A stretch of DNA of 64,000 bases from Oryzomonas sagensis (GTDB lineage: Bacteria; Desulfobacterota; Desulfuromonadia; Geobacterales; Pseudopelobacteraceae): assembly GCF_008802355.1 (NCBI RefSeq), contig NZ_VZRA01000003.1, forward strand, positions 52,196 to 116,195, in the 5' to 3' direction. This document shows, one piece after another, positions 16,259 to 53,435 of the stretch. The notes under the pieces are model-generated. The model made no database searches. It was not told the origin of the DNA and saw only the letters and a program-made list of their open reading frames with translations. Position 1 is the stretch's first letter. Every line of letters starts with the position of its first letter. Position numbers and translations under genes: made by a program.

Positions 16259-16555
16259 ATGCTGGATCTATTGGAAAAGACGGTTATGACCGCTATCGGG
16301 GCCGCTGCCATCACCCAGAAAAAGGCCGAAGAGCTGGTAAACGAGATGAAAGAAAAATACAAGGTCAGCGAGGACGAGGGGCGGAGTTTTGTTGACCGGG
16401 TTCAGGGCATCGCCCAGGAGAGCAAAGACAAGATCAGGGAGATGGCGGAGACCGAGGTCCGTAAGGTGGTGGACAGGCTCGGCCTGGTCTCGCGCGATGA
16501 GTATGAACGCCTGGTCGCCAGGGTGCAGGAGTTGGAGGCCCGCAACAACGAATGA
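16259..16555 (+). CDS. Phasin-like coiled-coil protein
   Basis: A 98-residue, almost wholly helical protein (MLDLLEKTVMTAIGAAAITQKKAEELV). It ends in a leucine-heptad segment (VDRLGLVSRDEYERLVARVQELEARN) typical of polyhydroxyalkanoate granule-associated or phasin-like regulators. The hydrophobic N-terminal helix may bind granules or membranes. The ATG follows AAGGAGG. It lies just upstream of a UbiB-family kinase gene; I infer a functional link only from position. The stop codon is directly followed by a palindromic repeat element. Confidence 0.7.
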   Translation: MLDLLEKTVMTAIGAAAITQKKAEELVNEMKEKYKVSEDEGRSFVDRVQGIAQESKDKIREMAETEVRKVVDRLGLVSRDEYERLVARVQELEARNNE

Positions 16556-16556
16556 A

Positions 16557-16720
16557 CCTAAAGACGACAGTTATTCACCACAAAGGCACAAAGAGCACAA
16601 AGAATTAACAGGGGTAGCGGCGAAAATGTCTTCACTCAAATCACTTAACTAACAGAAATTATTATTTGTGTAGCTTTGTGACCTTTGTGTCTTTGTGGTG
16701 AACGGACTTTTTCTTGATTG
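16557..16720 (+). repeat. Palindromic dispersed element, copy A
   Basis: The element starts CCTAAAGACGAC one base after the stop of the phasin-like gene. Nearly perfect inverted ends of about 29 bases lie at 16574-16602 (TTCACCACAAAGGCACAAAG and on) and 16674-16702 (its complement). They enclose an AT-rich centre with TTCACTCAAA. A TTTTT run follows at 16708-16712. A second copy lies in the opposite orientation at 53.26-53.44 kb. No gene is encoded. The structure suggests a MITE- or REP-like sequence that can fold into one long hairpin. Confidence 0.88.
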
Positions 16721-16825
16721 AATAGGCCTGCTTGAAATCCGTGGTGTTAAACCCGGCAGGAGGATGGCGCCGTGCTTCTCGTGGCACGCTGCGCGATAGC
16801 CGAAATCTGTCGATGGGAATGGCCC

Positions 16826-53242: not shown

Positions 53243-53260
53243 CCAGCCTCTCTCATTGAC

Positions 53261-53435
53261 TCAGAAAAAAGCTGTTCACCACAAAGGCACAAAGGTCACA
53301 AAGTTACACAAATAATTTAAATAAGTTATGTGGTAATTTTATAGTGGGCCGGACTCGCCTTTTGAGTGAATGCCGGTTTATCGATAACTCTTTGTGTTCT
53401 TTGTGCCTTTGTGGTGAATGGTTGTCGTCTTTAGG
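53261..53435 (-). repeat. Palindromic dispersed element, copy B
   Basis: Same family as the element at 16.56 kb but on the minus strand. Inverted ends lie at 53275-53303 (TTCACCACAAAGGCACAAAG and on) and 53390-53418. The CCTAAAGACGAC border is at 53424-53435 (seen as GTCGTCTTTAGG) and a T-run in its own direction is at 53265-53270 (AAAAAA on the plus strand). TTCACTCAAA and an ATTATTTGTGTA motif in the centre are shared with copy A. The stop codon of the ParA-like gene (TAA) lies inside the border. Confidence 0.88.

What the first reader, a model, noticed from the sequence alone, without database searches (positions are those of the whole stretch)
16557..16720. Dispersed palindromic element that may act as a mobile transcription terminator (copy A)
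Seen: a 29-base inverted repeat (TTCACCACAAAGGCACAAAG and on) encloses an AT-rich centre. The element begins with CCTAAAGACGAC one base after a stop codon and ends in TTTTT. Copy B at 53.26-53.44 kb has the same border, ends, centre motifs and T-run. In both places the element is oriented the same way as the gene whose 3' end it touches. A long hairpin followed by T bases is what an intrinsic terminator needs. Known: small non-autonomous repeats (MITE or REP type) spread in bacteria. Inference: this family lands at gene 3' ends and terminates or protects transcripts.
Basis: partly seen in the sequence, partly recalled or inferred. Interest (0 to 1): 0.6.

Follow-up and report, generated by a model that had tools for sequence, protein, structure and literature searches.

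The report
Jumping hairpin element at gene ends
The window holds two copies of a short non-coding mobile DNA element that forms a long hairpin, shares its ends and insertion footprint with a known class of jumping gene (IS1380) found in related bacteria, and tends to sit right next to stop codons, where it could act as a transcription terminator, although no RNA data show that it does.

Summary
Copies A (16557-16717) and B (53260-53435, minus strand) belong to a family of about 20 copies in this 3.6 Mb genome, each about 160-190 bp. It is a MITE, not a REP element. Its ends (left CCTAAAAACGGCAGTT, right CCTAGAAAAAGCAGTT) and 5-bp target duplication WTNAW match a 1.6-kb insertion sequence with an IS1380-like transposase found in related genomes; the 18-nt majority ends of 30 IS termini and 80 MITE left ends are identical. 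This genome itself has no such transposase, so its copies look stranded. Clean empty sites exist in sister species, including copy A's site.

The claim of an orientation bias does not (16 versus 9, p=0.23). The hairpin is strong (z about -6) and the conserved ends place T-runs beside it, so a terminator role is plausible but untested. The inner arms are covarying tandem repeats that change type under constant ends, which I cannot explain. Whether the published Geobacter MITE Chunjie is the same family could not be tested.

The parts
16557..16717 (+). Copy A, IS1380-type MITE, 161 bp, left end to right end on + strand
   Evidence: Alignment to the family, TSD analysis, absent at this place in sister genomes G002 and G004
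16552..16556 (.). Left target duplication ATGAA; contains the TGA stop codon of the upstream gene
   Evidence: G004 has a single TTGAA at this place
16718..16722 (.). Right target duplication TTGAA (4 of 5 match the left)
16557..16572 (+). Left terminal inverted repeat CCTAAAGACGACAGTT
   Evidence: 2 mismatches to the family TIR; IS consensus CCTAAAAACGGCAGTT
16702..16717 (-). Right terminal inverted repeat, degenerate
16574..16602 (+). Left hairpin arm, tandem CACAAAG repeats
16674..16702 (+). Right hairpin arm, complementary
   Evidence: fold z -5.8
16708..16712 (+). T-run TTTTT beside the hairpin; part of the transposon end, terminator-like
   Evidence: conserved in other copies
16259..16555 (+). 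Upstream gene (98 aa, phasin-like by eye) whose stop lies in the target duplication
53260..53435 (-). Copy B of the same MITE family, between the 3' ends of recN (+) and a ParA-like gene (-)
   Evidence: shared only with sister genome G002
53275..53303 (-). Copy B hairpin arm
53390..53418 (-). Copy B hairpin arm
53265..53270 (-). Copy B T-run (T6 on minus strand)
53431..53433 (-). Predicted stop codon TAA of the ParA-like gene, supplied by the element's left end
   Evidence: orthologues in G001 and G004 end at stops of their own nearby

Best explanation
[quoted passage not shown] The transposase recognises a 16-bp end (CCTARAAAMRGCAGTT) and inserts at WTNAW, duplicating 5 bp; the TNA core can be a stop codon (TAA or TGA). 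This genome has no such transposase, so its copies look stranded. Copies persist mainly in spacers and strikingly often beside stop codons, probably because insertions there do least harm. Once there, the long hairpin followed by the T-rich transposon end may form a terminator or 3'-end-protecting structure. Shown: family, ends, duplications, matching IS, empty sites, bias to stops, strong predicted hairpin. Inferred: trans-mobilisation by this IS subfamily, loss of the transposase, and any effect on transcripts.
For: Own genome: 38 arm hits versus 0 control. TSD: 30 of 85 elements have identical 5-mers, permutation mean 2.4, maximum 9 in 2000. Matching IS: transposase matching NF033539 (155.7 bits), PF13701 and PF01609 inside elements with ends CCTAAAAACGGC and TSD TTTAA/TTTAA; the 18-nt consensus of 30 IS ends (CCTAAAAACGGCAGTTGA) equals that of 80 MITE left ends. 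TIR plus WTNAW found in 99 of 141 genomes of the order, up to 80 ends per genome, control 0-3. Empty sites: copy A in G002/G004, other copies in G002 or G004. No IS1380 transposase hit in the own genome or its genus. Stop-codon enrichment: 24/55 versus 6.0%, p about 2e-15.
Against: No transposition was observed and transposase and MITE were not tested together; several own copies have imperfect duplications (copy A 4/5, copy B only the TGA core). The NF033539 score is below its curated cut-off of 180. The hairpin arms are not part of the IS. The stop-codon null uses only about 460 kb of the own genome and a home-made gene finder. The loop is about 71 nt, far longer than in canonical terminators, and the simple terminator scan did not call the hairpin.
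Confidence: 0.85

Rival explanations
1. Retention for function: copies are kept at gene 3' ends because the hairpin plus T-run works as a mobile, often bidirectional, terminator or mRNA 3' protector.
For: Enrichment at stop codons; strong hairpins; T-run of 5 or more beside the hairpin in 62 of 68 non-own copies in the L->R direction and 34 of 68 in R->L; arms pair better with their own partner than with others (20.2 versus permutation maximum 17.3).
Against: No orientation preference, though own-genome copies have a good T-run mostly in one direction (9 versus 2 of 13); harmless-site survival explains the same bias; the T-run is part of the transposase recognition end; no RNA data.
Confidence: 0.35
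2. Safe haven only: the transposase inserts at any WTNAW and only insertions at stops and in inert spacers survive; the hairpin has no host function.
For: WTNAW can contain TAA/TGA; none of 67 copies outside the own genome lies inside a predicted gene; of four same-place cases in G002 three carry inserts with the ends of another IS1380 group and one a MITE with the same kind of ends but other arms; autonomous IS copies show no obvious stop adjacency (small sample).
Against: The arms keep complementarity while changing sequence, which a purely inert passenger would not need, unless the hairpin serves transposition or arms are copied from one another.
Confidence: 0.5
3. REP/REPIN-type palindrome moved by a RAYT (Y1 transposase).
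For: Palindromic, short, intergenic, dispersed.
Against: 5-bp target duplications and DDE-type TIR shared with an IS1380-like element; far longer than a REP.
Confidence: 0.03
4. Paired binding sites for a nucleoid protein or global regulator, as proposed for other multicopy paired-repeat sequences in Geobacter metallireducens (PMC2700814).
For: Arms are tandem 7-9 nt repeats in two opposite-strand blocks.
Against: No binding data; repeat unit differs between genomes (CACAAAG, CACAGAG, CACGAAA, CGCCGAT); the published classes have other consensus repeats.
Confidence: 0.1

Closest known systems
IS1380-family insertion sequences (e.g. ISEcp1)
   Same: Ends begin CCTA (ISEcp1 IRL CCTAGATTCTACGT) and ISEcp1 insertions carry 5-bp direct repeats (PMC7864471); the candidate partner matches NF033539/PF13701
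   Different: The MITE is about 165 bp, non-coding, with long hairpin arms absent from the IS; the partner's transposase scores below the curated IS1380 cut-off
Chunjie MITE of Geobacter uraniireducens Rf4 (as reviewed in PMC10969869)
   Same: MITE with TIRs and direct repeats, intergenic, same order; the genome here called G086 (5,136,364 bp, identified as Rf4 only by size from memory) carries 66 family ends
   Different: Reported sizes 178-235 bp against 144-183 bp in G086; original paper not held, so identity is unresolved
Correia/NEMIS elements, ERIC, SPRITE (PMC10969869)
   Same: Small dispersed palindromic elements; Correia processed by RNase III, ERIC at gene 3' ends affecting transcripts, SPRITE terminator-like
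   Different: Compared only through the review text; no sequence relation was tested
piggyBac transposons (PMC10813416)
   Same: Ends often begin with CCC motifs, TTAA-like target; the paper uses IS1380 transposases as outgroup
   Different: Bacterial, 5-bp WTNAW

Membership tests
MITE | Short, non-coding, multicopy | tested here: met
   About 20 copies of about 160-190 bp in 3.6 Mb
MITE | Terminal inverted repeats | tested here: met
   16-bp CCTARAAAMRGCAGTT at both ends
MITE | Target-site duplication | tested here: met
   5-bp WTNAW, 30/85 identical versus 2.4 expected
MITE | Autonomous partner with same ends | tested here: met
   IS1380-like element in related genomes; none found in the own genome
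MITE | Past mobility shown by empty sites | tested here: met
IS1380-derived | Partner transposase belongs to IS1380 family | tested here: inconclusive
   Best NCBIfam match NF033539, 155.7 bits, cut-off 180; PF13701 80.3 bits, above its cut-off
IS1380-derived | Transposase acts on MITE ends | not testable with these tools
   Needs an experiment
REP/REPIN | No target duplication, RAYT-linked | tested here: not met
   Target duplications present; RAYT linkage itself was not searched
Intrinsic terminator | Stable hairpin followed by T-run | tested here: met
   but long loop, and not called by the simple scan
Intrinsic terminator | Ends transcripts | not testable with these tools
   No RNA data
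Chunjie | Sequence identity with published element | not testable with these tools
   Paper not held

The most novel reading that the evidence does not exclude
A modular, widespread class of MITE in which IS1380-type ends enclose interchangeable hairpin arms of covarying tandem repeats, targeting or being kept at stop codons, so that transposition itself distributes ready-made, often bidirectional terminators at gene 3' ends.
Probability: 0.25. Interest if true: 0.65.

Novelty: new member of a known kind. Interest (0 to 1): 0.42.

Why it matters
It ties a common palindrome of the Geobacter relatives to a concrete transposase family, with exact ends, target motif and empty sites, so mobility can be tested directly. 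If the terminator role holds, it would be a case in which a mobile element supplies gene 3' ends, and the swapping of arm sequences under constant ends would need an explanation.

Tried and rejected
RNA family: no Rfam match in the window. REP/RAYT: rejected on target duplications. GxxExxY as mobiliser: one copy of the arms encloses a GxxExxY gene, but that cassette lacks the CCTA ends (read), so it is not the partner. TNA 3-bp duplication: first reading, replaced by 5-bp WTNAW. Orientation rule: tested, not significant. A CCTAAATTCTGC class of MITE with both ends: none found in the fetched loci. Literature search with six arm repeat strings found one unrelated paper, and a seventh string found none. 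A copy B empty site could not be defined because that spacer differs in every sister genome except G002.

Full report
Observation. Copy A spans 16557-16717 with 29-nt arms 16574-16602 and 16674-16702; copy B spans 53260-53435 on the minus strand. The arm pattern occurs 38 times in the genome, control 0, and alignment resolves about 20 elements plus one cassette with a GxxExxY gene. The RNA folds are strong (z -5.8 and -6.1).

What it is. The outer ends of copies across the order share CCTAAAAACGGC (left) and CCTAGAAAAAGCAGTT (right), and identical 5-mers flank many copies. Among 85 elements chosen by ends and arms alone, 30 have identical flanking 5-mers and 45 match at 4 or more positions; permuting partners gives means of 2.4 and 14.4, and maxima of 9 and 25. 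The consensus is WTNAW. The pattern WTNAW+TIR is found in 99 of 141 genomes of the order with almost no control hits. These are MITEs.

The partner. A search for IS1380 transposases found none in the own genome but several in the order. One subfamily of about 500 aa sits in 1.6-kb elements with CCTAAAAACGGC at both ends and TTTAA on both sides. Nearly all IS ends read in the related genomes are flanked by WTNAW-type 5-mers. Over 18 nt the majority sequence of 30 IS ends is identical to that of 80 MITE left ends. The other IS1380 groups examined have different ends, so the match is specific to this subfamily. That this transposase moves the MITEs is an inference from shared ends and target.

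Mobility. Copy A is absent at the same place in G002 (flanks 96-97% identical) and in G004, which has a single TTGAA there. Other copies have single-target places in G002 or G004; at one place (C1:68964) own genome and G002 carry different MITEs of the same TIR type while G004 is empty. At three further places G002 carries elements with the ends of another IS1380 group (CCTGAATCCGTGA, compare). Copy B is shared with G002 only.

Position. In the own genome 14 of 20 copies have an end within a few bases of a predicted stop codon (my reading). Among 55 order-wide elements with 4-5/5 duplications, 24 are within 8 bp of a stop (6.0% of 1079 intergenic WTNAW sites, p about 2e-15), and in 12 the stop codon is exactly the TNA of the duplication (3.8% expected, p about 9e-7). 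None of 67 copies outside the own genome lies inside a predicted gene. Orientation relative to the gene is not significantly biased. Autonomous IS copies show no obvious stop adjacency, but contexts are few and gene prediction there is poor. The bias can come from survival at harmless sites or from benefit; the data do not separate these.

Mechanism at the RNA level. The right TIR read outward from the hairpin is AACTGCTTTTTCTAGG, so insertion places a T-run next to a long stem. T-runs of 5 or more occur in 62 of 68 non-own copies in one direction and 34 of 68 in the other. This is terminator-like, but the loop is long, part of the T-run can pair with the A-rich left end, and the simple terminator scan did not flag it. 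In G086 a group II intron has entered the 3' arm of four family copies at the same point, showing that another mobile element uses the hairpin arm as a site.

Arms. The arms are tandem repeats whose unit differs between genomes (CACAAAG, CACAGAG, CACGGAG, CACGAAA, CGCCGAT, CACGAAT) while both arms stay complementary: own-partner score 20.2 against a permutation mean of 13.9 and maximum of 17.3. Similar arms without CCTA ends form a second, more numerous family in this genome. How arms change together is unexplained; selection on a hairpin and copying between arms are both possible.

Limits. Gene calls are from a codon-usage script, not annotation. The Chunjie paper was not held.

Noticed in passing
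G000:C1:182217-182673 (L037, L068): CACAAAG-type arms enclose a GxxExxY gene (TIGR04256, PF13366 PD-(D/E)XK superfamily) without the CCTA ends; a similar cassette, GxxExxY by eye, lies in G012 (L043).
   Followed up: partly
L189 9295-9414, L194 11668-11833, L201 1668-1764 and others: A second palindrome family, TCTGCCACAGAGACACAGAG arms, 97-204 bp, about ten copies in 400 kb of the own genome, no CCTA ends and no clear target duplication.
   Followed up: partly
G086:C1:1746057-1748294, 2400508-2402734, 3392948-3395193, 1758822 onward (L346-L349): A group II intron with maturase (TIGR04416, RF00029) sits at the same position in the 3' hairpin arm of four copies of this MITE family, in copies of either orientation.
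   Followed up: partly
L308, L314, L298 (G002): MITE-like inserts with ends CCTGAATCCGTGA, matching another IS1380 group of the order, sit where the own genome has this family.
   Followed up: partly
L349 (G086:C1:1758600-1762400): One family copy with intron lies next to a PstS-like phosphate-binding gene (identified by eye); Chunjie was reported in a phosphate uptake operon of G. uraniireducens.
   Followed up: no
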